From Lysobacter antibioticus (lineage in GTDB: Bacteria; Pseudomonadota; Gammaproteobacteria; Xanthomonadales; Xanthomonadaceae), in the NCBI RefSeq assembly GCF_000731095.1, contig NZ_JMTZ01000041.1:1-35546 (forward strand): a stretch of 35,546 nucleotides of DNA, read 5' to 3'. Below the pieces are notes generated by a model that saw only the letters and a program-made list of their open reading frames with translations, did not search any database and was not told where the DNA came from. A program made the position numbers and the translations under genes. Position 1 is the stretch's first letter, and each line of letters begins with the position of its first letter. Below, piece by piece: positions 1 through 30,730 of this stretch.

Positions 1-53
1 TTTTGGGCTTAGCAAAAGAAAGTAACCCGGCCGCGTTAGCGGACGGAAGCTTT
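1..53 (+). repeat. Terminal inverted copy, left (dispersed repeat)
   Basis: The first 53 bases match the reverse complement of 35491-35543 with one mismatch, so the window starts and ends with inverted copies of one element. Similarity continues weakly for about 20 more bases (gatgttgcttc on both sides). The short ORF running through it is repeat-derived and not a gene. The element probably continues outside the window. No transposase is visible next to it. Confidence 0.8.
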
Positions 54-100
54 GCTGTTGATGTTGCTTCGCTGTCCTACAGCCGGAGACGCGGGAGCAC

Positions 101-135
101 GACAGGACGCGGTCGCGGCTCGCGCCGCTCCTACC
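101..135 (-). repeat. REP-like repeat fragment
   Basis: This stretch is the inverted form of the family whose other copies begin gtaggagcggcgcgagccg (16134, 18488, 18628, 24033, 35321). It lies downstream of the ATP-grasp gene stop codon. Only one arm of the usual two-armed element is visible here. Confidence 0.65.
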
Positions 136-175
136 CTTTAAAGCTGTCTGAGCTGCGGCGTCGAGGCGCCTCGCC

Positions 176-1297
176 TCACTCCAAGGTAATCCCCGCCGCC
201 GCCGGCGTGCGGTCCTTCAGCGTTTCGCTGGCGCGCGCCCACCATTCGCGGTGCTCTTCGCTGGCGCAATACTCGGCATAGGACAGCTTGGCGATGGTCG
301 CCAGGGAATAGTCGGGACGGCCTTCGGCCAGCATCGCGCTCATCGCGCGCAGCAGGGGCAAAGAAGGCAGCAGGTCTTCAATGAAGAGGAATTGGCCGGC
401 CTGGTTCACTTCGAGGAAATGCGCATCGCCGTTGCCGTCGATGGCCAGGTCGATGCAGCCGAACACCAGGCCGAGTTCGCGCATCAGCGCGGCGAGCTTG
501 GCCTGGTCGACGGACGAGAGCTCGCCGACTTCGGCCTGCAGCCCCTGCGTGTTCTGGGGGACGCGCCAATCGACGAAGCCGTCGTCGTGCTGGGTGTACA
601 GGCGCGCGGCGAAGTAGCGGTCGCCGATCGCGGTCACGCGCAGGTCGTAACGTTTGTCGACGTAAACCTGGTAGATGCCGGGGCAGTGCAACAGGCTCTG
701 GTCGTCTTCGAGCATCGCCGGTTCGACGATGCGCGCATAGGTGCTGAACATGCGGCCGGTCTCGGCGTCCTTCCAGGTGTGGGTCAGGAAGGGTTTGTAG
801 ACCACGCGGCCGTGGCGCTGGACGAAACGGCGGATCTCGGCGGGGTCGTGCGAGACCAGGGTCGGAGGGAAGCGCAGGCCGCAGTGATGGGCGGCGCGCA
901 GTTGTACGAGTTTGTTCTCCGCCATCGCCGCGGCAGCGGGGCGATTCACCCACAGCCGGTCGGCGCCTTGATCGGTGAGTGCATAGACGTTCTTGAGGAA
1001 ACGCCCCCATTCGCCGCGCAGAAAGGGCTGGTCGCCGGCCTGCGCGCGCGGGAAGGATTCGGGATTGCGCGGCCGCCGATACCAGACCGTGCCGACGCTG
1101 GCGTCGTCGAGAGGGCCGCTCATGCGCAGGCCGAGGTCGGGGTCACAATGCAGGGACATCGCGCCGAGTTCGGCTTCGGCCAGCGAGCTCAGCCAGGTTG
1201 CGTCGATACCGCTGGCGCGCAAAGCCCAGCGCGCGGCGGAAGCATGGATGTCGTGGGCCAGCGAGGACAGGATCAGCGGACGGCGGTGAGCGGGCAT
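176..1297 (-). CDS. ATP-grasp ligase, graspetide (MvdD-like) RiPP maturase
   Basis: This 373-aa protein is predicted to use ATP to join Asp/Glu side chains of a precursor peptide to Ser/Thr (or Lys) side chains, giving macrolactones or macrolactams. Residues 1-105 look like the pre-ATP-grasp domain of MvdC/MvdD enzymes, with WYRRPRNPE at 72-80. The ATP-grasp fold follows: ENKL with Lys129, VVYKPF with Lys168, YQVYVDKRYDLRVT at 209-222 (Asp218, Arg220), CIDLAIDG with Asp283, and FLEVNQAGQFLFIEDL at 294-309 with Glu296 and Asn298 as metal ligands. DLRVT...FAARL and FLEVN..GQ are typical of graspetide ligases rather than of glutathione or D-Ala ligases. It is the last gene of the minus-strand locus, 165 bases after the precursor. 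The ATG at 1297 has no strong ribosome-binding site. The family call is firm; activity on the adjacent precursor is inferred. Confidence 0.88.
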   Translation of the reverse strand: MPAHRRPLILSSLAHDIHASAARWALRASGIDATWLSSLAEAELGAMSLHCDPDLGLRMSGPLDDASVGTVWYRRPRNPESFPRAQAGDQPFLRGEWGRFLKNVYALTDQGADRLWVNRPAAAAMAENKLVQLRAAHHCGLRFPPTLVSHDPAEIRRFVQRHGRVVYKPFLTHTWKDAETGRMFSTYARIVEPAMLEDDQSLLHCPGIYQVYVDKRYDLRVTAIGDRYFAARLYTQHDDGFVDWRVPQNTQGLQAEVGELSSVDQAKLAALMRELGLVFGCIDLAIDGNGDAHFLEVNQAGQFLFIEDLLPSLPLLRAMSAMLAEGRPDYSLATIAKLSYAEYCASEEHREWWARASETLKDRTPAAAGITLE

Positions 1298-1330
1298 GGA
1301 AGCGTTCGTGTTTTCAGGGCCATTGAAAAC

Positions 1331-1357
1331 GGCACGCCCCGTCGGACGGGGCGTGCC
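1331..1357 (-). terminator. Hairpin between precursor and ligase (possible attenuator)
   Basis: A perfect 13-bp inverted repeat (GGCACGCCCCGTC / GACGGGGCGTGCC, one central base) lies between the precursor stop and the ligase start. In the direction of transcription it is followed by GTTTTC, a short T run. It could act as a leaky terminator or mRNA stabiliser giving more precursor than enzyme transcript. Its function is inferred from position. Confidence 0.6.
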
Positions 1358-1462
1358 GGGTCATGCGTGGCGGCGGGGTTTACGCGCACGTCGCTCGCGC
1401 GCGGGTCCACCCTGCCTGGTGCATGGACTGCATCCGATCAGATCGAGCGGAAGTCGAGGCGA

Positions 1463-1648
1463 TTACAGGAAATCGGGATCGCCCGGATCGTCGCCGTTCG
1501 GACCGGTGGCGTGGGTGCTGTCGCCCTTGCCGCCGGAGATCGCTGCGATCTCGTCCAACGAAAGTTCGCGCGCTGCGATGCGGGCGAGCGGGCGGGCGGC
1601 TTCGTCCTGAGGCAGAGCGTTGTTGCTGTAAACGTCTTGCTTACTCAT
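1463..1648 (-). CDS. Graspetide-like RiPP precursor peptide, double-glycine leader
   Basis: This is a 61-aa peptide. Residues 28-40 read ELSLDEIAAISGG, a classical double-glycine leader end (ELS..E...ISGG) of the sort cut by C39 peptidases. Cleavage after Gly40 would release a 21-residue core starting at Lys41. The core holds Ser44, Thr45 and Thr48 followed by Asp53, Asp54, Asp57 and Asp59, plus an early Asp43; the motif is THATGPNGDD then PGDPD. Nucleophilic side chains first and acidic ones later is the arrangement expected of an ATP-grasp ester substrate. There is no Glu in the core and no microviridin motif (TxKxPSD). The start is supported by AGGAG at 1657-1661. It sits between the C39 transporter and the ATP-grasp gene on the same strand. 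The ring pattern and bioactivity are unknown. Confidence 0.85.
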   Translation of the reverse strand: MSKQDVYSNNALPQDEAARPLARIAARELSLDEIAAISGGKGDSTHATGPNGDDPGDPDFL

Positions 1649-1656
1649 GGAGCGTT

Positions 1657-1661
1657 CTCCT
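1657..1661 (-). promoter_or_regulatory. Ribosome-binding site of the precursor peptide
   Basis: AGGAG lies 8 bases before the ATG at 1648. It is the strongest ribosome-binding site in the RiPP locus and supports translation of the short ORF at high level. Confidence 0.7.
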
Positions 1662-1728
1662 AAACCGTAGAGTGCCAGGATGAGTTGAAAGGCCGTCCCG
1701 GCGTCGGCACGAGCATCGATGCTAACAA

Positions 1729-3882
1729 CTATGAAAGTCGCGGTTTGCTAATCGCGATCCCACTTTCGCCCTGAATGCGCGAAGCGATGGGGATTGCAAA
1801 CTCGGGCGTTGTGATCTGTTCACTGACGCCGTCGCGCAAGGCGACGACGCGGTCTGCGCTGCGGATCGTATCGGGCCTGTGCGCGATGACGATGCGGGTC
1901 ATGCGCAAGGCGGAAATCTCGCGATTGATCTCGTGCTCGCGGGCGACGTCGAGGTGGCTGGTGGCCTCGTCGAGCAACAGGATCGCCGGCGAGCGATACA
2001 AGGCGCGCGCCAACAGCACGCGTTGTTTCTGTCCGCCCGACAGCGACGAACCCAAGTCGCCGACCAAGGATTCGTAACCCATCGCCATCGCCGCGATATC
2101 GTCGTGGATGCGCGCCGCGCGCGCCGCCGCTTCGATGCGCCCGGGGTCGGCGGCGTGGTCGAAGGAGGCGATGTTCTCGCCGATCGAGCCGGCGAACAGC
2201 ACGTCCTCCTGCATCACCGCGCCGAACAGTTCGCGGTACGCGGCCAGGCCGTAGTCGTGAATATCAACGCCGCCGATGCGGATCGTGCCCGAGCTCGGGC
2301 GCAGCAGGCCGAGGATCAGCTTGGCCAGGGTGGTCTTGCCGCAACCCGAGGCGCCGACGATCGCCACCGATTCGCCGGCTTCGATGTCGAAACTGCAGTC
2401 GCGCAGGATCCACGGCTCGTCGTCGGCGTAGCGGAAGCTGAGCCGCTCGATCTCGATGCGCGGCGCCGGCACCGGGCCGGCGTAGTCGGTGTGCACGTTC
2501 GCTTCGGGCGGCTCGAAGGCGATGTCGGCGATGCGTTGGCCGTGCAGGCCGAGCAGGCGCAGGTCGACGAGCTTGTCGATCAGGCTGCCGGTGCGGGTAG
2601 CGAACAGGTCGGCATAGGCGACGAACACCACCATCATGCCGGCGCTGAAGCGGCCCTTCAGGGTCAGCCAGGCGCACAGCCAGATCAGCAGCACGCGCTG
2701 GGCGCCGAACACCAGCTTCGACAAGGCGGAGAACACTGCGGTGGTGCGGGCGATCGCGGCCTCGCGATTGGCCACCTCGACGCTGGCGTTGGCGATGCGC
2801 CCGCGACGGTCGTCCTGTTGATTGCCGAGCTTGATCGTCTGCACGCCCTGGATCGACTCGATCAACAGGCTCTGCTGCTTGGCGACGTGGATCAACTGCT
2901 CCTCCTTGAGCCGCCACAGCCGCCGGTACGCGGCCCAGCGCACAATCGCGTAGACGGCGAACGCGGCCAGCACCAACGCCGTCAACGGCGGGCTGTAGAA
3001 CAGCAGCAGCGCCAGCACCAGGGTCACGGTAAGGCCGTCGAGCAGGCTCTCGACGAAACTGCCGGTCAGGGTCTGCTGGATCGCCTGCACCGAGACGAAA
3101 CGCGACATCACTCCGCCGACATGGCGCTTTTCGAAGAAATCCAGCGGCAGCCGCATCAGGTGGCCGAACAGATTGGCCAGCCATTGCGAGTTCAAGGCGG
3201 CGCCGAGGTCGGCGACCAACCAACCGCGCATCGCCGTGAGCGTCGCCTGGAACACCACCACGACCAGGAAGCCGATGCCGAGCAGGTTCAACAAGCCGAT
3301 GTCGGCGGCCACCAGAACGCGGTCGATCACCCACTGCATCGCCAGCGGCAGCAGCAGGGTGAACACCTCCAGGCTCAGCGCCAGGATCAGGATCTGCGCA
3401 CCGGCGCGGCGCAGGCCGACGATGCGGCCGGCGAGCCCGCGCAGGCTCAGGCGCTGGCGTTCGCGCATCGGCACGAAGTCGGTCTTGGGCGACAGTTCCA
3501 GGGCGATGCCGGTGTACTGGCGGCCGAACTCGGCCAGCGGCAGGCTGACCGCACCGCGCGCCGGGTCGTGCAGTTCGGCGCGGCCACGGGCGATGCGCTT
3601 GAGCACGACGAAATGATTGAGGTCCCAATGCAGCACGCAGGGCAGGCGCAGATCGGCGAGGTGTTCGATCTCGGCCCGCAAGGGGCGGGTGTCGAAGCCG
3701 AGCGCGCCGGCGATCTTGATCAAACGCGCCAGAGTGGCGCCGCGCGGCGACACCGGGAAGCGCCGGCGCAGGCTGCTCAGATCGATGTCATGGCCATGGT
3801 GGACGGCGATCATCGCCAGACAGGCCAGGCCGCACTCGGCCAATTCGTTCTGCTGGATCACCGGCACGGACTTCGCGCTCAT
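1729..3882 (-). CDS. Peptidase-containing ABC transporter (C39 protease/ABC exporter)
   Basis: This is a 717-aa inner-membrane protein that should cleave the double-glycine leader and export the mature peptide. Residues 1-135 are a C39 peptidase with NELAECGLACL (Cys17), the His90 of HWDLNHFVVL and Asp106 of LHDPARG as catalytic triad. Residues ~160-430 are the transmembrane domain. The ATPase has Walker A GASGCGKTT (510-518), signature LSGGQ (614-618), Walker B ILLLDEA (634-640) and an H-loop IVIAHRP. The reading frame is open much further upstream, but the ATG at 3882 overlaps the previous stop as ATGA and begins right at the peptidase domain, as in the family. All key residues are present, so the transporter looks functional. 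The precursor follows 80 bases later. Related families are the lactococcin/colicin V and graspetide PCATs. Confidence 0.92.
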   Translation of the reverse strand: MSAKSVPVIQQNELAECGLACLAMIAVHHGHDIDLSSLRRRFPVSPRGATLARLIKIAGALGFDTRPLRAEIEHLADLRLPCVLHWDLNHFVVLKRIARGRAELHDPARGAVSLPLAEFGRQYTGIALELSPKTDFVPMRERQRLSLRGLAGRIVGLRRAGAQILILALSLEVFTLLLPLAMQWVIDRVLVAADIGLLNLLGIGFLVVVVFQATLTAMRGWLVADLGAALNSQWLANLFGHLMRLPLDFFEKRHVGGVMSRFVSVQAIQQTLTGSFVESLLDGLTVTLVLALLLFYSPPLTALVLAAFAVYAIVRWAAYRRLWRLKEEQLIHVAKQQSLLIESIQGVQTIKLGNQQDDRRGRIANASVEVANREAAIARTTAVFSALSKLVFGAQRVLLIWLCAWLTLKGRFSAGMMVVFVAYADLFATRTGSLIDKLVDLRLLGLHGQRIADIAFEPPEANVHTDYAGPVPAPRIEIERLSFRYADDEPWILRDCSFDIEAGESVAIVGASGCGKTTLAKLILGLLRPSSGTIRIGGVDIHDYGLAAYRELFGAVMQEDVLFAGSIGENIASFDHAADPGRIEAAARAARIHDDIAAMAMGYESLVGDLGSSLSGGQKQRVLLARALYRSPAILLLDEATSHLDVAREHEINREISALRMTRIVIAHRPDTIRSADRVVALRDGVSEQITTPEFAIPIASRIQGESGIAISKPRLS

Positions 3883-4466
3883 GAGCCCGTCCGATGAGCG
3901 TCGGGTGCGGCCTCGGTGTTCGACAGCGGCGCCAACACGAACTCGTAAAGACGTCGTTGCTCCAATTGAAGCTCGGCATCGACTCGCATACCCGCCTGCA
4001 ATGCCTGCGTGCCGATGCGCTGGCGATCCAGCTCGACCTGCACCGACCAGGCCGGCGCGTCCGGGCGCAGGCCGCTGCGCCGGTGGACCTCGTCGGGCGA
4101 TGAGGCCGCGGCGGCTATCGCGACCACGCGGCCGTGCTGCACGCCGTAGCGCTGATACGGGAAGGCGCGGTAGCGCAGGACTGCCGGCGTGCCCTGGTGG
4201 ATCGCGGCGATGGCGCGATCGGGCACCCACACCTGCGCCTGCAGGGGCGATGGGCCGCGCGGTGCGGCCTGCGCTACCAGCACGCCGCCGACACGTTCGC
4301 TATGGGTGTAACGGCCGAATGCGAGCAGGGCTGACAGTGCGAGCAGACCGAGCAGGCCGAGCGCGGCCATCGGCCAGCCCAGGCGCGAGATCGGCAGGCG
4401 GATGCTGCCGAGCCAGCGTTGTTTCCTGGCTTCGAGCATTTCGCGTCTGAACAGGTCTTCGTGCAC
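3879..4466 (-). CDS. Miniature HlyD-like membrane fusion protein lacking the helical hairpin
   Basis: This 195-aa protein resembles both ends of a CvaA/HlyD secretion accessory protein (usually about 400 aa) but lacks the middle. Residues 1-25 give the cytoplasmic LFRREMLEARKQRWLGS segment, 30-50 one membrane helix, and 51-64 the typical RYTHSERVGGVLV strand. It then jumps directly to LQAQVWVPDRAI and LRYRAFPYQRYG, which belong to the membrane-proximal beta domain after the hairpin. About 200 residues, comprising the lipoyl halves and the coiled coil that contacts TolC, are missing in frame. The GTG start at 4466 has GAGG 8 bases upstream; the stop overlaps the transporter ATG. It could be a degenerate gene or a genuine mini-adaptor; the intact frame and coupling favour expression. 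Confidence 0.8.
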   Translation of the reverse strand: MHEDLFRREMLEARKQRWLGSIRLPISRLGWPMAALGLLGLLALSALLAFGRYTHSERVGGVLVAQAAPRGPSPLQAQVWVPDRAIAAIHQGTPAVLRYRAFPYQRYGVQHGRVVAIAAAASSPDEVHRRSGLRPDAPAWSVQVELDRQRIGTQALQAGMRVDAELQLEQRRLYEFVLAPLSNTEAAPDAHRTGS

Positions 4467-4706
4467 GTAAGCCTCAGACGCGTGGCGAGGATCGAAGGGT
4501 GCCGTTCGGCGAACCCATGGCGATCGCGGTGCGTCTGTCGTCTCCTGCCGTTACGACTCGGTCGCTGAGTGTCGTACAAGGCCGATGGCGTTTCCAGGTC
4601 GCCATTGTCGAACGCCGTCACGGTTCGCGGGGATTGCAACAAATCGTTCAGCCCTGTTGCTGTCGGCCATGCCGCGATGCGCAGGCGTTCGAGACGCAGC
4701 GCATGC
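4467..4706 (-). promoter_or_regulatory. Leader region of the RiPP locus
   Basis: This 240-base stretch separates the DUF418 gene from the first RiPP gene, so the locus promoter is most likely here. I see no convincing -35/-10 pair. A 6-bp inverted repeat ATGGCG/CGCCAT with a 9-base spacer occurs near 4583-4605. No second precursor-like ORF was found. Confidence 0.3.
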
Positions 4707-5918
4707 TCAAGCGGCATCGCGCGCGGGTTTGCGCCAGCGCGGCCAGGTGCCGAGGGTGATCGCGCGCAACAGCCATTCCATCGGGCCATGGCCGTGACGC
4801 TGCATCCACCAGGCGCTGAGGCGCAGTTGCGCGCCGAACAGCAGGACCGCGAAAGCCAGTACTGCGAGCGGCGAGACCCGCCCCATCAGGCCGAGGCCGT
4901 AGCCGGTGAACACCAGCGCGGCGGCCGCCGATTGCAGCAGGTAGTTCGACAAGGCCATGCGTCCGGCCGGGGCCAACCATCGCACGAGTCGCGGGCCGGC
5001 GCGGCCGGCGAAGCCGCTCATGGCCAGGGCGGCATAGGCGCCGGTCAGCAAAGGCGCGGTCAGCAGGCTCAAGGCCAGCGCCGCCAGTTCGAGCGCGCCG
5101 CCGGGTTCGAAGGTGGAGACGCCGGCATAGAACGCCGCCGCCGGCAGGCCGATGCCGAAACCCCAGCGGCGCAGTCTGCGCAGCAACGGTCGATAACGAT
5201 CGAGGCGGGCAAACACTTCGCGACGGCCGGCGACCCGGCCCAACAGGAACATCGCCAAGGCGCATGGCGCCTGCATGAAGGCGAGCACGATCCCGGTCGA
5301 CGCCAGTTCGCTTATGCGCTGGGCGACGACCGCGCTGGGCGGACCGGTGAAGCCGGCGAGGGTCGCCTGCGCTTCGGCCGCGGCGCTGCGGGCATCGACG
5401 GCGCCGGTTTCGCCACTGAGCCGAATCAGCAAAGCCAGCCCGGCCCAGGCGGCGGCGGTGGCCACGATCAGGGCCAGGGCGCAACGCAACGCGGCGCGCT
5501 CCGACAGCGCGCGCATCGCCAGCAGGGCCAGGCCCATCGCCGCATAGGTGCCGAGGATGTCGCCGTGAAACAGCAGCACGGCGTGGGCCAGGCCGATCAG
5601 CCACAGCCCGAGCGAACGCCGCAGCATGCGCGGCACGAAGGCCTCGCCTGCGCGCTGCGCCGAATCGAGCTGCAGGCTGAAGCTGTAGCCGAACAGGAAC
5701 GAAAACAGCAGGTAGAACTTCATCTCGAACAAGCAGGCAACGAGCAGGCGCACCGCGCGGTCCAGCCCTCCGTCGTAACCCGGATCGGGCAGGCCCAGGC
5801 CGTAGTAGGGCGAGGCGAACACGCCGAGGTTGACGACCAGGATGCCGAACAGGGCGAAGCCGCGCAGGGCGTCGAGCTGTTCGATGCGTGGCGGGACGAC
5901 GCGGGCGGATGCGGTCAT
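4707..5918 (-). CDS. DUF418 family integral membrane protein
   Basis: This 403-aa polytopic membrane protein is of the DUF418 (YeiB-like) family, whose members are often linked to acyltransferase-3-like folds; the biochemical role is not established. The N-terminus RIEQLDALRGFALFGILVVN matches the family hallmark (D.LRG.A..GIL..N). KFYLLFSFLFGYSF follows at about 85-98, and the C-terminal DUF418 core contains GRMALSNYLLQS. Several hydrophobic segments span the whole length. The frame is open upstream to 6398, but the family begins at this ATG. It is divergent from the histidine kinase (127 bases between starts). No functional link to the RiPP genes is evident, though it directly precedes them on the same strand. 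Confidence 0.85.
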   Translation of the reverse strand: MTASARVVPPRIEQLDALRGFALFGILVVNLGVFASPYYGLGLPDPGYDGGLDRAVRLLVACLFEMKFYLLFSFLFGYSFSLQLDSAQRAGEAFVPRMLRRSLGLWLIGLAHAVLLFHGDILGTYAAMGLALLAMRALSERAALRCALALIVATAAAWAGLALLIRLSGETGAVDARSAAAEAQATLAGFTGPPSAVVAQRISELASTGIVLAFMQAPCALAMFLLGRVAGRREVFARLDRYRPLLRRLRRWGFGIGLPAAAFYAGVSTFEPGGALELAALALSLLTAPLLTGAYAALAMSGFAGRAGPRLVRWLAPAGRMALSNYLLQSAAAALVFTGYGLGLMGRVSPLAVLAFAVLLFGAQLRLSAWWMQRHGHGPMEWLLRAITLGTWPRWRKPARDAA

Positions 5919-8798: not shown

Positions 8799-11700
8799 AT
8801 GCAAGGCATTACCCGCACCACGCGTAATCGCGTTACCCGCATGCATTCCCGTTCCCTGCTTTCGCTCGCCATCGTCGGCGGCCTGCTCGCCGTTTCGGCG
8901 TCGGCCGCGGCGCAGAACGCGAACCCGATGGGCCAGCTCGGCAATCCCGACAGCTGGCGCAGCGACGAATTCAAGGCCGATTGGGGCCTGGCCACGATCA
9001 ACGCCCAGTACGCCTATGCGCGCGGCCTGACCGGCAAGGGCATCCGTCTGGGCGTGTACGACAGCGGCACGGTGTTCGGCCATCCCGAGTTCGCCGGCAA
9101 GGACCACCGCGCCGTGCACATGGCCGACGTGCTCGCCGACGGCAGCGTTTGCACCAACACCTCGATCATCGGAGGCGCCGGCGCCTGCTTCACCTCGCGC
9201 GGCGACCAGGCGCAGATCCGCTACGTCGGCTTCAACGCGAACGTGCCCGAGAACATCCGCCGCATCATCCAGTCCGGCCCCTACGTGCAGCCGGGTTGGG
9301 AGTTCAACACCCACGGCACCCACGTCGGCGGCACCATCGCCGCCAACCGCGACGGCAGCGGCATGCACGGTGTCGCCTTCGGCGCCGACCTGACCGCGGC
9401 CAAGTGGTCGTTCAACAGCGTGCGCGAGTGGGCGCGCAGCGCCACCGGCGGCTACAGCGTCGTCAGCATCGGCGGCGTCGGCCCGGAAGACGCGACCGTC
9501 GCCGGCATGTACGCGCAAATGAACGAGCAGGGTGTGCGCGCGGTCAATCACAGCTGGGGCTTGGCCAACGAGCCGAATACCCTGGCCCAGCTCGACGGCT
9601 ATCTGTTCGACCCCGACAACGCCGCCTATTTCGACACCTTCGCCAAGGGCTCGCTCGACAAGGGCATGCTGCAGGTGTGGGCGGCGGGCAATCACAACGT
9701 CGCCGGCACGACCCCGCAGACCGCGCCGCAGGCTGGCTTGTACGCGAGCCTGCCGCGCGGCCGCGCCGAACTCGAGCCGTACTGGCTGAGCGTGGTCAAC
9801 GTCAATCAGAACCTGGTGCTCAGCGCTTCGTCGATGCGTTGCGCGCAGACCGCGAACTGGTGCGTCGCCGCACCGGGTTCGACGATCAACTCGACCGTGC
9901 TCGGCGGCGAGGAATCGCTGCAGGGCGGGTTGGTGCGCAATCCCGACGGAACGATTTCCTTCGACATCACCGCCGGCGCGCCGACGTTCGAGTACGGCAA
10001 CCTCAGCGGCACCTCGATGGCGACGCCGCACGCAGTCGGTTCGCTCGGCCTGCTGATGGAGCGCTTCCCCTATCTCGCCAACACCCAGGTCCGCGACATC
10101 CTGCTGACCACCGCGACCGATCTCGGCGCGCCGGGCGTGGACGAGGTCTACGGCTGGGGCTTGATCGATTTGAAGAAAGCAATCGACGGCCCGGGCCAGA
10201 TCCGCGTCGACACCGATGTGGTGATGGACCGTCCGGGCGGCGGCGCCAAGGTGTGGGACGGTAAGGCTTGGGACGATTGGCGCAACGACATCGGCGGTTC
10301 CGGCGTGCTGAGCAAGTCCGGCCTCGGTTGGTTGCGCTTGAGCGGCAACAACAGTTTCGGCGGCCTCAAAGTCAAGGACGGCGTGCTCGAACTGACCGGC
10401 CACAACACCTACGCCGCGCAGGTCGAAGGCGGCACCCTGGTCGTCAACGGCAGCTTGACCACGGCCTCGTTGCCGGTGCTCGCCGGCGGCGCGCTCGGCG
10501 GCAGCGGCCGCATCGTCGGCGACGTGCGCATCGAAGGCGCGGTCTCGCCGGGCAATTCGATCGGCACCCTGAGCGTGCAGGGCAACTACGTGCAAGCGGC
10601 GGGTTCGACCTATGTCGCCGAGCTGTCGGCCGGCGGCGCCTCCGACCGCATCGACGTCAGCGGCCAGGCCCGTCTCGAAGGCGGCAAGCTGGTGGTGCTG
10701 CATGCGCCGGGCCAGTACATGCTCGGCCAGTCGTTCAACCTGATCAGCGCCGCCGGCGGCGTCAGCGGCCAGTTCGCCTCGCTCGACCAGACCGCGTTCT
10801 CGCCGTTCCTCAAGTTCGGCCTCAGCTATGCGGCCAACCAGGTCGGCGTCGACGTGACCCGCGGCGCCTCGCTGGCGGCGAGCGCGCAGACCGACAACCA
10901 GCGTGCCGCCGCCGCCGCGGCCGACCGCCTCGCGATCGGCCAGGGCATTCCGCAGCCGCTGACCCAGTTGTTCCCGGAACAGGCGCTGGCCGCGCTCGAC
11001 GCGCTCAGCGGCGAGGCCCACGCCAGCCTGCGTTCGATCATGGTCGACGACAACCGCCATGTGCGCGATGCCGCCTTGGGCCGTGCGCGCGCCGGTCGCG
11101 GCGATTTCGCCGCCGACAGCGCCGGCGAATCCTCGCAGGGCGCCTGGGTGCAGTTGCTGAAGTCCGGCGGCACCCTCGACGGCGACGGCAATGCCGCGCG
11201 CAATGAGTACAACGGCTCGGCCACCTTGCTCGGTTACGACTACCGCTTCGACGGCGGCTGGCGCATCGGCGTGCTCGGCGGCAGCGGCCGCAGCGACAAC
11301 AACGATGCCCGTAACGACAAGGGCCGCATCAAGACCCGTCACCTGGGCCTGTACGCCGGGCAGAACTGGGGCGGTTTCGGCCTCAGCGCCGGCGTCGCGT
11401 TCGCCCGTCACGACGTCGACCTGGATCGCGGCATCGCCTTCAACGGCTTCAACGATCGCGCCCGTTCCAACTACGACGCCGACAGTAAGCAGGGCTTCGT
11501 CGAAGGCGGCTACCGCTTCGACGCCGGCGCTTGGGCGTTCGAGCCGTATGCGCAGTTCGCCCAGGTGCGGGTGAAGAGCGATGGCTTCCAGGAAAGCGGC
11601 GGTGCCGCGGCGCTGACCGGCCGCGGCGCCGACAGCCGCGTCAACCTGTCGACGCTGGGTCTGCGCTTCAACGTCGACCTGAAGGGCTCGCAGCAGGAGC

Positions 11701-11960
11701 AGAGCTGGCTGAGCCTGCGCGGCGGCCTCGGCCGTCGCCATGCCAGCGGCGACCTCAACCCGGCGACCTCGGTGGCCTGGCGCGGCGGCGACGCCTTCCA
11801 GGTCCACGGTGCGCCCCTGGCCGACGACGCCACCCTGCTCGAAGCCGGCATCGCCGCACGCCTGAGCGCGAACGGTTTGTTGGAACTGAACTACAGCGGT
11901 CAGCTCGCCGACGAGGCGCACGACCACGGAGTCAACGCGCGGTATTCCCTGCGCTTCTAA
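8799..11960 (+). CDS. Subtilisin-like serine protease autotransporter (S8 family)
   Basis: This 1053-aa secreted protease uses type Va secretion. A signal peptide ends near ASAAAQ (residue 39). The S8 catalytic domain (~65-460) has Asp88 in LGVYDSG, His172 in THGTHVGGT, oxyanion Asn298 in WAAGNHN and Ser406 in LSGTSMATPHA, so all catalytic residues are present. An autotransporter-associated beta-helix segment (VKDGVLELTGHNTY, ~525-540) and a low-complexity linker follow. The C-terminal ~270 residues form the outer-membrane barrel, beginning around QGAWVQLLKSGG and ending in the aromatic residue Phe of RYSLRF. The ATG at 8799 has AAGGGA upstream; an alternative start at 8841 would give a more standard signal peptide. 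A terminator follows. Likely role: extracellular proteolysis, as in predatory or lytic xanthomonads. Confidence 0.95.
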   Translation: MQGITRTTRNRVTRMHSRSLLSLAIVGGLLAVSASAAAQNANPMGQLGNPDSWRSDEFKADWGLATINAQYAYARGLTGKGIRLGVYDSGTVFGHPEFAGKDHRAVHMADVLADGSVCTNTSIIGGAGACFTSRGDQAQIRYVGFNANVPENIRRIIQSGPYVQPGWEFNTHGTHVGGTIAANRDGSGMHGVAFGADLTAAKWSFNSVREWARSATGGYSVVSIGGVGPEDATVAGMYAQMNEQGVRAVNHSWGLANEPNTLAQLDGYLFDPDNAAYFDTFAKGSLDKGMLQVWAAGNHNVAGTTPQTAPQAGLYASLPRGRAELEPYWLSVVNVNQNLVLSASSMRCAQTANWCVAAPGSTINSTVLGGEESLQGGLVRNPDGTISFDITAGAPTFEYGNLSGTSMATPHAVGSLGLLMERFPYLANTQVRDILLTTATDLGAPGVDEVYGWGLIDLKKAIDGPGQIRVDTDVVMDRPGGGAKVWDGKAWDDWRNDIGGSGVLSKSGLGWLRLSGNNSFGGLKVKDGVLELTGHNTYAAQVEGGTLVVNGSLTTASLPVLAGGALGGSGRIVGDVRIEGAVSPGNSIGTLSVQGNYVQAAGSTYVAELSAGGASDRIDVSGQARLEGGKLVVLHAPGQYMLGQSFNLISAAGGVSGQFASLDQTAFSPFLKFGLSYAANQVGVDVTRGASLAASAQTDNQRAAAAAADRLAIGQGIPQPLTQLFPEQALAALDALSGEAHASLRSIMVDDNRHVRDAALGRARAGRGDFAADSAGESSQGAWVQLLKSGGTLDGDGNAARNEYNGSATLLGYDYRFDGGWRIGVLGGSGRSDNNDARNDKGRIKTRHLGLYAGQNWGGFGLSAGVAFARHDVDLDRGIAFNGFNDRARSNYDADSKQGFVEGGYRFDAGAWAFEPYAQFAQVRVKSDGFQESGGAAALTGRGADSRVNLSTLGLRFNVDLKGSQQEQSWLSLRGGLGRRHASGDLNPATSVAWRGGDAFQVHGAPLADDATLLEAGIAARLSANGLLELNYSGQLADEAHDHGVNARYSLRF

Positions 11961-24123: not shown

Positions 24124-25011
24124 TCAGTGACTGGGTGGATCACAAGCCACGCTCTCGATCTGCAAGGTGCAGTGCTCGATGCCGTAGCGTTCGTCGAGTT
24201 GCCGCGCCAATTCGCCGCGCAAGGCATCGGCATCGACGCCTGCGTCGACGACCAGGTGCGCGGTCATCGCCGGAGTGCTCGACCCCAGCGACCACACGTG
24301 CAGGTCGTGCACGTCGCCGACGCCGGGCGTTGCCGTCAGGGTCGCGCGCACCGCGGCGAGGTCGATGCCGCCCGGCACGCCTTCCATGAGCACGTTGCCG
24401 GCCTCGCGCAGCAGGGTCCAGGTACGCGGCAATACCCACAGGCCGATCAGCACGGCCAGGATCGGGTCGACCACGGTCCAGCCGGTGAAGCGGATGACGA
24501 TGGCGCCGGCGATCACCGCGACCGAGCCGAGCATGTCGCTCCACACCTCGAGGTAGGCGCCTTTCATGTTGAGGCTTTCGCCGCTGCCGGCCTTGAGCAG
24601 GCGCATCGCGACCAGGTTGACGATCAGGCCGAGCGCGGCGATCGTCAGCATGCCGGTGGTTGCGATCTGCGGCGGTTCGCTGAAGCGGCCGGCCGCTTTC
24701 CACAGAATGTAGGCGGCGACCGCGAACAGCATCAGGCCGTTCGCCATCGCGCCCATCGCTTCCATGCGCGCGTAGCCGTAGCTGCGTTTCGCATCCGCCG
24801 GTTTGCGGCTCAGCCGCACCGCGGTCAGCGCGATCATCAGCGCCAGGGTGTCGGTGCCCATGTGCGCGGCGTCCGACAACAGCGCCAGGCTGTTGGTCAG
24901 GAAGGCGCCGACGACTTCGGCGATCAGGAAGCCGCCGGTCAGGCCGAGCGCCCACCACAAGGGGCGCTCGTGGCGGATCGCGGTGCTGCCGTGGTCGTGT
25001 CCGCTGCTCAT
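24124..25011 (-). CDS. czcD: Cation diffusion facilitator (CzcD-type) metal efflux protein
   Basis: This 295-aa inner-membrane transporter has six predicted helices and a cytoplasmic C-terminal domain. It should export Zn, Co or Cd by proton antiport. Helix 2 carries SDAAHMGTD (Asp47, His50, Asp54). Helix 5 reads YLEVWSDMLGS with Asp159, and Glu155 stands where zinc-specific members have His. The N-terminal HDHG is a short metal-binding stretch. The C-terminal domain has VHDLHVWSLGSSTPAMTAHL and IEHCTLQIES, typical of CzcD. AGGAG lies 7 bases before the ATG. It is 94 bases downstream of czcA and probably in the same operon. Confidence 0.9.
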   Translation of the reverse strand: MSSGHDHGSTAIRHERPLWWALGLTGGFLIAEVVGAFLTNSLALLSDAAHMGTDTLALMIALTAVRLSRKPADAKRSYGYARMEAMGAMANGLMLFAVAAYILWKAAGRFSEPPQIATTGMLTIAALGLIVNLVAMRLLKAGSGESLNMKGAYLEVWSDMLGSVAVIAGAIVIRFTGWTVVDPILAVLIGLWVLPRTWTLLREAGNVLMEGVPGGIDLAAVRATLTATPGVGDVHDLHVWSLGSSTPAMTAHLVVDAGVDADALRGELARQLDERYGIEHCTLQIESVACDPPSH

Positions 25012-25105
25012 ATCGATGCTCCTGTTTGCGTCGTAAGCGGATCGCCCGCGGGCGATGCTCAGGATCGAGGCGGGCCGCGCGAACGCGACCCGCCCTGTTG
25101 CCGCC

Positions 25106-29368
<4,263 letters not shown>

Positions 29369-29372
<4 letters not shown>

Positions 29373-30730
29373 GGGGCGGCTCCTGCGGGGGCGGACGGTG
29401 GGGCGAGGAAGGATTCGCCGGTGAGGCGCTGGATTTCGATCAGCGCCAGCTGCGCGTCGAGCGCGGTGTCCAGGCGCTGTTTGCGCACGGCCACGCTGTC
29501 GGCCTGCAACAGGGCCAGTTCGAGATAACTGATGGCGCCGGCGCGGTAGGCGTACTCGGCGGCGTTTTCGGCCCGGCTCATGCGCGGCAGGACCTCGTCC
29601 TTGAGGCGCGCGACTTCGAGTGCGCCGACCCGGTAGCGGCCGTGCGCTTCGACCAGGGTCGAATACAGCGACAAGCCCTTGGCTTCGCGCTCGGTTTCGA
29701 GCACGGCCAGTTCGGCCTGGGCGCCGCGGATGCCGGGTTCGGCGCGGCTGCGTGCGCCGAGCGGCATCGACACGCTGCCGATCAAGGCGGTGTCGCCGCC
29801 GTCCTGCAAGCGGCGCACGCCGATCTGCCAATCGATGTCGGCGCTGGCTTGGCTCTGCGCCAGGCGCACGCGTGCTTCGCCGATGCGGCGCGCGTCGACG
29901 AACCGGGTCAGCTCGGGGCTGCGGTCGAGCAAGCCCGCCAAGGCGGTGGCTTCTTCGATCTTCGGCAAGGCATAAGGATCGCCGGCGACCTCGGCGAAAC
30001 CCGGGTCGCGTTCGCCCCACAGCGCGGCCAGGTGTTGGCGCGCGGCGAGCAGGCTTTGCTCGCTGCGCGCGCGATCGAGTTCGGCGCGCGCCAGCGCGGC
30101 CTGTGCGGTCAACAGGCCGGACTCAGGCGACGCGCCCGCGACCAGGCGCTGGCGCGCGGCGGCGACGGTGCGCTTGCGCTGGCCGATGTCGAACTGCGCC
30201 AGTTCGATCCGGCGTTGCGCGGCGACGATGCCGAGATAACGCCGCGCGGTCTCGGCCAGCAGGTCGAGTCGGCGGCTTTCGCGATCGACCGCGAGCGCAT
30301 CGATGCGGCTCTGGGCGAAGGCGCGGCGCGCGTCGAGCTTGCCGCCGCGTTCGAACACCGAGGCCAGGCTGAGGGTGATCTCGGCCCCCTTGACGCCGCT
30401 GACCGCGCCGCTGCCGAAGACGTTGTCGACCGCGGCGCCGGCGATCCAGGCCGGACGCTGCGCGGCGAGGTCGCGCTCGGCTTCGAGCACCGAACGCTGG
30501 CTGCCGAACAGACGCAGGTCGGGGTGGGCGTCGCCGATGCGCGCGAAGGCGTCGTCGAGAGTGAACACCGAGGCCGCGCGCGCGGCCCCGGTTGGGGGGG
30601 GAGCTGACGTGCCGGAAGTAGCAGGACCGGCAGTGGCCGGGCTTGAAGCGGCGGCAAGGGGAGGCCGCGCCTGTGCCGAAAAGCACAGAGCGGCCGTCAG
30701 GACGGCCAGGGCCGCCGGACGCAAACGCAT
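29369..30730 (-). CDS. czcC: CzcC-type outer-membrane channel protein
   Basis: This 453-aa TolC-family protein has an N-terminal signal (MRLRPAALAVLTAALCFSAQA) and an Ala/Pro-rich linker (~25-52). Two long helical repeats follow, with FTLDDAFARIGDAHPDL and RAENAAEYAYRAGAISYLELALLQAD, the latter being the diagnostic CzcC end. It forms the outer-membrane exit duct for the CzcCBA pump. AGGAG lies 8 bases before the ATG. It overlaps czcB by 4 bases and follows a small His/Cys protein gene. Confidence 0.92.

What the first reader, a model, noticed from the sequence alone, without database searches (positions are those of the whole stretch)
176..4466. Uncharacterised graspetide-type RiPP locus with a C39 exporter
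Four minus-strand genes form a complete maturation and export unit: a mini-HlyD protein, a C39-ABC transporter, a 61-aa precursor with a double-glycine leader, and an MvdD-like ATP-grasp ligase. Seen directly: a Cys/His/Asp peptidase triad, Walker motifs, graspetide ligase motifs (DLRVT..., FLEVNQAGQ), and the leader ending ELSLDEIAAISGG. Known: ATP-grasp ligases of this family make side-chain esters or amides, and C39 transporters cut after GG. Inference: the product is a small cyclic peptide of the omega-ester class with a core unlike microviridin, marinostatin or plesiocin. It has no dehydratase, lanthionine synthase or second modification enzyme. This is the best candidate for a new system in the window.
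Basis: partly seen in the sequence, partly recalled or inferred. Interest (0 to 1): 0.85.

Follow-up and report, generated by a model that had tools for sequence, protein, structure and literature searches.

The report
Thatisin-type graspetide cluster in Lysobacter
These four genes make, trim and export a small ring-closed peptide that matches the already described 'thatisin' kind of graspetide from Lysobacter, so the locus is real but it is not a new system.

Summary
In detail: four minus-strand genes (HlyD-like, C39-ABC exporter, 61-aa GG-leader precursor, ATP-grasp ligase) lie at 176-4466. The graspetide reading is right: the modelled ligase matches solved graspetide synthetases ahead of other ATP-grasp enzymes, and a precursor with the same core precedes the ligase in the window and 20 of 20 relatives examined. 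The novelty claim fails. The core THATGPNGDDPxDP marks one ligase clade of Lysobacter, Luteimonas and kin, Lysobacter antibioticus HS124 included (82% identical ligase). That fits thatisin/iso-thatisin, characterised group 16 graspetides (PMC13097080, passages); source species and ring details are recalled, the original paper is not held. Predicted product: a 21-mer with two macrolactones, Thr45 and Thr48 onto two of Asp53, Asp54, Asp57.

The parts
3879..4466 (-). HlyD-like membrane fusion protein, shortened (195 aa): N-terminal part plus C-terminal barrel part; lipoyl and coiled-coil part absent
   Evidence: TIGR01843 1.4e-14 over profile 308-414 of 422 only; in 17 of 19 loci with an HlyD the same N and C parts lie ~700 bases further apart, in 16 of these 17 in one open frame of 422-743 aa counted from stop to stop; G283 shares the short form
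1729..3882 (-). C39 peptidase-ABC exporter (NHLM type), 717 aa
   Evidence: Peptidase_C39 3.6e-35; best NCBIfam TIGR03796 NHLM_micro_ABC1 1.8e-140, below its cut-off; match over 6-686 to the solved ABC-type bacteriocin transporter 4ry2
1657..1661 (-). AGGAG, probable ribosome-binding site of the precursor
   Evidence: sequence directly
1463..1648 (-). graspetide precursor, 61 aa, stop included
   Evidence: homologues before the ligase in 20 of 20 relatives examined; dN/dS 0.05
1529..1648 (-). leader, residues 1-40, with RPLAR...AREL motif and GG cleavage site
   Evidence: RP[LFI][AG]R in 24 of 24 precursors, GG before the core in 24 of 24
1466..1528 (-). predicted core KGDSTHATGPNGDDPGDPDFL, residues 41-61
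   Evidence: T45, H46, A47, T48, G49, G52, D53, D54, P55, D57, P58 identical in 24 of 24 precursors
1330..1358 (-). 13-bp perfect hairpin followed by TTTT, between precursor and ligase: possible attenuator or partial terminator
   Evidence: a hairpin of 9-13 bp in the same spacer in 21 of 21 loci, four or more T in a row after it in 7 of 21
176..1297 (-). graspetide synthetase (ATP-grasp ligase), 373 aa
   Evidence: family, profile and fold matches; grouped with 23 other THAT-type ligases

Best explanation
This is the Lysobacter thatisin-type (group 16) graspetide cluster. The ligase binds the precursor by its leader (RPLAR...AREL; inferred) and, using ATP, phosphorylates side-chain carboxylates of the core and closes them onto threonine hydroxyls, most likely two macrolactones from Thr45 and Thr48 onto two of the three invariant aspartates Asp53, Asp54, Asp57. 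The C39 domain of the exporter cuts after Gly39-Gly40 and the ABC transporter moves the 21-residue product (predicted [M+H]+ 2076.889 with two rings) across the inner membrane. A hairpin after the precursor gene may let more precursor than ligase message be made. Shown here: gene content, conservation, ligase family and fold, clade membership. Inferred: ring number and partners, cleavage, export, attenuation. Target and biological role are not known.
For: The first 32 rows of the fold search with the ligase model are PruB, MdnC, CdnC, AMdnB, MdnB and PsnB chains, before DcsG, D-Ala ligases and RimK (that PruB and CdnC are graspetide synthetases is partly recalled). The window and 20 of 20 relatives, fetched for their ligase, have at least one precursor with THATG[PA][NG]GDDPxDP after a GG. 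A DNA pattern for THATGPxGDDP in the named genome collection gives 16 stretches: 15 of Lysobacter, Luteimonas or other Lysobacteraceae/Lysobacterales, each with a ligase homologue in the stretch (15 of 15), and one chance match (L061). One of the 15 is L. antibioticus HS124 (L059). PMC13097080 (passages) names thatisin and iso-thatisin as group 16 with Pro cis/trans isomers, and lists group 16 among those with high co-occurrence of an NHLM-type transporter, the best NCBIfam family of P0003. PMC9826346 (passages) says thatisin shares lactone formation and lacks a lactam ring.
Against: The paper that describes thatisin (Ramesh et al. 2021, 10.1021/acschembio.1c00672) is not held, so I did not see its sequence, strain or connectivity; the link to the name rests on the THAT core, L. 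antibioticus as source (recalled), two invariant Thr, invariant Pro residues and the transporter type. The ligase is below the curated cut-offs of the NCBIfam graspetide models. The branch that unites the THAT ligases has support 92/81, short of the tool's 95/80 mark. Three of 15 precursor stretches hold no C39 transporter (L057, L063, L065), and two of 21 loci show none in 15 kb (L054, L055, which are the same two genomes as L065 and L057).
Confidence: 0.88

Rival explanations
1. A graspetide of a new group, with a core and ring pattern not yet described.
For: The core differs from microviridin, marinostatin and plesiocin motifs (recalled); the thatisin sequence itself could not be read here.
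Against: The same core in 15 of 16 named hits, L. antibioticus among them; the 24 ligases with that core need one change of label on the tree; group 16 thatisin is described as characterised.
Confidence: 0.06
2. A cluster in decay: the exporter arm is broken by the HlyD deletion, and the peptide is no longer fully secreted in this lineage. (Not exclusive of the best explanation, so the odds do not add to one.)
For: HlyD has lost ~225 residues with the lipoyl and hairpin part in this genome and G283; its dN/dS in this pair is 0.32 against 0.05-0.06 for the other three genes, and about 1 in the 20 residues round the junction (dN 0.328, dS 0.335).
Against: N and C parts of the short HlyD run at 0.26, within the range of the same parts in three full-length pairs (0.10-0.35), and whole full-length HlyD runs at 0.13, 0.20 and 0.31; precursor, exporter and ligase stay at 0.05-0.06; frame and length are the same in both genomes.
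Confidence: 0.2
3. The ATP-grasp gene is not a RiPP enzyme but a RimK- or D-Ala-ligase-like enzyme, the small ORF being incidental.
For: Weak RimK-family match, 1.9e-7.
Against: Graspetide synthetases outrank the others by family, profile and fold; precursor conserved before the ligase in 20 of 20 relatives.
Confidence: 0.01

Closest known systems
Thatisin / iso-thatisin, graspetide group 16 (Lysobacter antibioticus by recall; Ramesh et al. 2021, seen only as a citation in PMC13097080 and PMC9826346)
   Same: THAT-type core (inferred from name, species and conserved Thr/Asp/Pro), lactone-forming ATP-grasp ligase, NHLM/C39 exporter, Lysobacter host; the L. antibioticus HS124 locus has an 82% identical ligase and the identical stretch THATGPNGDDPGDPD
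   Different: Ser44 for Thr before the THAT motif, C-terminus FL instead of DGAV, shortened HlyD
Microviridin (MdnB/MdnC, MvdC/MvdD)
   Same: Same enzyme fold; leader motif RP[LFI][AG]R resembles the PFFARFL motif named in PMC8939145
   Different: One ligase in the unit, no acetyltransferase seen; core unlike the microviridin motif (recalled); below MvdC/MvdD cut-offs
Plesiocin (PsnB) and PruB of Streptomyces coelicolor
   Same: ATP-grasp ligase with the matching fold
   Different: Core and leader sequences differ (recalled)
Lysobacter graspetide precursors 'cluster 859', ATP-grasp branch 3 (PMC8939145, passages and section 6 parts 1-2)
   Same: Predicted Lysobacter graspetide precursors; may be these very ones
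   Different: Sequences are in a figure that is not held, so identity could not be checked

Membership tests
Graspetide | ATP-grasp ligase of the graspetide synthetase family | tested here: met
   best matches are graspetide synthetases; NCBIfam cut-offs not reached
Graspetide | Adjacent precursor with leader and a core with conserved Ser/Thr/Lys donors and Asp/Glu acceptors | tested here: met
   two Thr and three Asp identical in 24 of 24 precursors
Graspetide | Side-chain ester/amide rings (loss of 18 Da each) | not testable with these tools
   Needs mass spectrometry
Group 16 (thatisin) | THAT-type core shared with an L. antibioticus precursor | tested here: met
   L. antibioticus HS124 has THATGPNGDDPGDPD as here; that this is thatisin itself is inferred
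Group 16 (thatisin) | Core identical to the published thatisin precursor | not testable with these tools
   Paper not held
Group 16 (thatisin) | Ligase in one clade with the L. antibioticus ligase and other THAT-type ligases | tested here: met
   24 THAT rows need one change, support 92/81; L041 (G116, taken as L. antibioticus HS124) lies in the well-supported set of 8 with the window (100/99)
Group 16 (thatisin) | Co-occurring NHLM-type transporter | tested here: met
   best family TIGR03796 (below cut-off); one search states the co-occurrence
Group 16 (thatisin) | Two interlocking macrolactones and Pro cis/trans isomers | not testable with these tools
   Ring connectivity recalled from the abstract of the 2021 paper; isomerism stated in PMC13097080
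Microviridin | Two ligases above MvdC and MvdD cut-offs | tested here: not met
   130.6 of 425 and 110.7 of 475 bits; one ligase in the unit
C39 peptidase-containing exporter | N-terminal C39 domain and ABC exporter domains; GG-leader substrate | tested here: met
   cleavage itself not tested
HlyD membrane fusion protein | Lipoyl domain and coiled-coil hairpin between the N-terminal segment and the barrel | tested here: not met
   only the C-terminal part of the profile is matched; relatives have the missing part

The most novel reading that the evidence does not exclude
The 195-aa HlyD is a working minimal adaptor: having lost the lipoyl and hairpin part that should reach the outer-membrane channel, it still serves the C39 exporter, so this lineage exports its graspetide by another route (release into the periplasm, or a partner protein that supplies the hairpin).
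Probability: 0.25. Interest if true: 0.4.

Novelty: new member of a known kind. Interest (0 to 1): 0.2.

Why it matters
It shows that the locus is not a new system but fits a characterised graspetide group, with a core nearly unchanged in 24 precursors. It adds a core variant (Ser44), a survey of the distribution in Lysobacteraceae, a recurrent hairpin between precursor and ligase, and an adaptor protein that lost its hairpin yet seems to be kept, which is a testable case of export without a full HlyD.

Tried and rejected
Considered and rejected: a new graspetide group (same core in L. antibioticus and 14 other named stretches); a RimK-like or other non-RiPP ligase; identity with Gra-8 of Lysobacter capsici (group 19; PMC9576775, passages and section 11): it is described with four conserved acceptors and at least four donors, which does not fit two invariant Thr and three invariant Asp; its sequence was not seen. 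The Tessaracoccus match is chance: it lies at the start of a 261-aa ORF after a 204-aa ORF that reads like superoxide dismutase (by eye), and no ligase homologue was found in the 8 kb.

Led nowhere or weak: the sigma-70 scan found no site in 1-5000, and the terminator scan found no more sites than shuffles (3 against a mean of 3.2), although one of the three is the 13-bp hairpin. Four or more T in a row follow the hairpin in only 7 of 21 loci (read), which speaks against a plain terminator in the others. The flank analysis picked several antisense ORFs because of the high G+C; only its conservation counts were used, and the genes downstream of the ligase in relatives were not named. Of the 28 further places (31 listed, less the window, G090:C1 and G070) I fetched 20 (L092-L111); 8 of the 20 show a small ORF upstream with RP[LF][AG]R and no THATG core (L092, L093, L094, L098, L102, L103, L104, L107, whose filter asked for a purine-rich stretch before the start and a limited length). 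These were not followed further. Two of the 22 other-genome ligases at 49% identity or more (L027, L028, short contigs) are not among the 21 loci.

Full report
What is there. The exporter starts at the ATG that overlaps the HlyD stop, giving 717 aa.

The ligase. NCBIfam's first matches are graspetide maturases, below their curated cut-offs; all 14 members of an alignment of THAT-type ligases match the same three models at 1e-20 or better. Sequence search of solved structures gives 5ig8, 5ig9, 7mgv, 9bou, 7m4s and 7drm, named MdnB, MdnC, RiPP-associated ligase (CdnC), PruB, AMdnB and PsnB. An AlphaFold2 model from 14 sequences (mean pLDDT 81.7, pTM 0.84; the segments 172-179, 181-186, 246-250 and 366-373 below 50) finds 32 chains of these six before the first other ATP-grasp enzyme (50 rows shown of 1271 matches).

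The precursor and its relatives. In 297 genomes drawn from the family, the window's included, 49 have a ligase match at 1e-15 or better. Of the 22 other-genome matches at 49% identity or more I fetched wider stretches for 20; with the window that makes 21 loci. Every one has at least one precursor and three have two, 24 in all. The 24 were picked by the string THATG, but the loci were picked by the ligase, so the pairing in 21 of 21 is not circular. In all 24, Thr45, His46, Ala47, Thr48, Gly49, Gly52, Asp53, Asp54, Pro55, Asp57 and Pro58 (window numbering) are identical; Pro50 and Asn51 in 23 each; the residue before Thr45 is Thr in 17, His in 5, Ser in 1 (the window) and Asn in 1. All 24 leaders have RP[LFI][AG]R and a GG before the core. 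The precursor runs at dN/dS 0.05 against G283.

Distribution and name. A DNA pattern for THATGPxGDDP in the named genome collection gave 16 stretches, 15 from Lysobacter, Luteimonas or other Lysobacteraceae/Lysobacterales and one chance match. All 15 have a ligase homologue in the stretch (one cut by its end), 12 of 15 a C39 transporter. One is Lysobacter antibioticus HS124; its contig length, 90,890 bases, equals that of G116:C10. G116 has three ligase matches; the other two were looked at in stretches of 8.0 and 6.0 kb and show no THAT in six frames. Thatisin and iso-thatisin are given as group 16 graspetides with Pro cis/trans isomerism, and group 16 is listed among those with high co-occurrence of an NHLM-type transporter (PMC13097080, passages); thatisin shares lactone formation and lacks a lactam (PMC9826346, passages). 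That thatisin comes from L. antibioticus and has two interlocking macrolactones is recalled; the citation of Ramesh et al. 2021 was seen in reference lists, the paper is not held. Searches: 'thatisin' lists four papers, two of them unrelated by title; graspetide with Lysobacter antibioticus none; graspetide with Lysobacter two. PMC8939145 (passages and section 6 parts 1-2) also reports a Lysobacter precursor cluster 859 that may be the same.

Tree. In a tree of 52 ligases (51 different) the 24 with a THAT core need a single change of label (support 92/81, just short of the tool's mark; 94% of bootstrap trees); the window's nearest row is G283 at 98% identity. Long branches are flagged among the other rows.

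HlyD. In 17 of the 19 loci with an HlyD, the two parts of the window's protein lie ~700 bases further apart, in one open frame in 16 and not in one frame in L046. Only the window and G283 have the short form. In 20 genomes of the genus, 14 have a match at 1e-6; 12 of these at 1e-36 or better, of which 10 have open frames of 422-464 aa and 2 are short. Full-length relatives carry biotin-lipoyl and barrel-sandwich matches that the short form lacks (three relatives). The short protein differs at 27 of 195 residues from that of G283, against 12 of 717, 1 of 61 and 9 of 373 for the other genes. Its N and C parts run at dN/dS 0.26, the whole at 0.32, and the 20 residues round the junction at about 1; the same parts of three full-length pairs run at 0.10-0.35 and the whole protein at 0.13, 0.20 and 0.31 (a fourth pair, L041-L042, was too alike to use). 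So it is faster than its neighbours, as HlyD is in general, with no clear sign of decay.

Hairpin. Between precursor and ligase a GC-rich hairpin of 9-13 bp (at most one mismatch) lies in 21 of 21 loci; the best hairpin beats all 30 shuffles in 19 loci, with 1 of 30 and 3 of 30 shuffles as good in L037 and L050. In the window the stem is 13 bp with TTTT after it, and the 168-nt stretch from precursor stop to ligase folds at z -3.9. Four or more T in a row follow in 7 of 21. An attenuator that favours precursor over ligase is inferred.

Neighbourhood. With four of the 21 loci as reference and ORFs of 90 aa or more, flanking ORFs recur in at most 10 of 21 loci, the HlyD and exporter in 19 and the ligase in 21 (the precursor is too short for that test). 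This supports 'no second modification enzyme', with the caveat that the downstream genes were not identified by family and that the fetched flanks differ in length.

Verdict.

Noticed in passing
3879-4466: HlyD shortened by ~225 internal residues in this genome and G283 only, of the genomes examined; same frame and length in both.
   Followed up: yes
1330-1358: 13-bp perfect hairpin with TTTT between precursor and ligase; a hairpin in the same spacer in 21 of 21 loci.
   Followed up: partly
L092, L093 (G316, G399, another family of the order): Close ligases (49% and 46% identical) beside small ORFs with a RPLAR..AR.L leader motif but no THAT core.
   Followed up: no
L094, L098, L102, L103, L104, L107 (family f12 of the order): Related ligases (37-41% identical) beside small ORFs with a RP[FL][AG]R leader motif, no GG and different acidic cores, some with NDAPD or NDWPD.
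   Followed up: no
L045, L046, L048, L068: Two THAT-type or P0002-like precursors in a row before one ligase.
   Followed up: no
G000:C32:11923-12669 (L006, L114): The same genome holds a second, distant graspetide-type ligase match (36% identical) with no THAT in the 7.5 kb looked at.
   Followed up: no
8799-11960: Subtilase-domain autotransporter, 1053 aa.
   Followed up: no
24124-30730: Minus-strand cation efflux protein, AcrB-type pump and outer-membrane efflux protein near each other, an efflux set; ORFs between them were not scanned.
   Followed up: no
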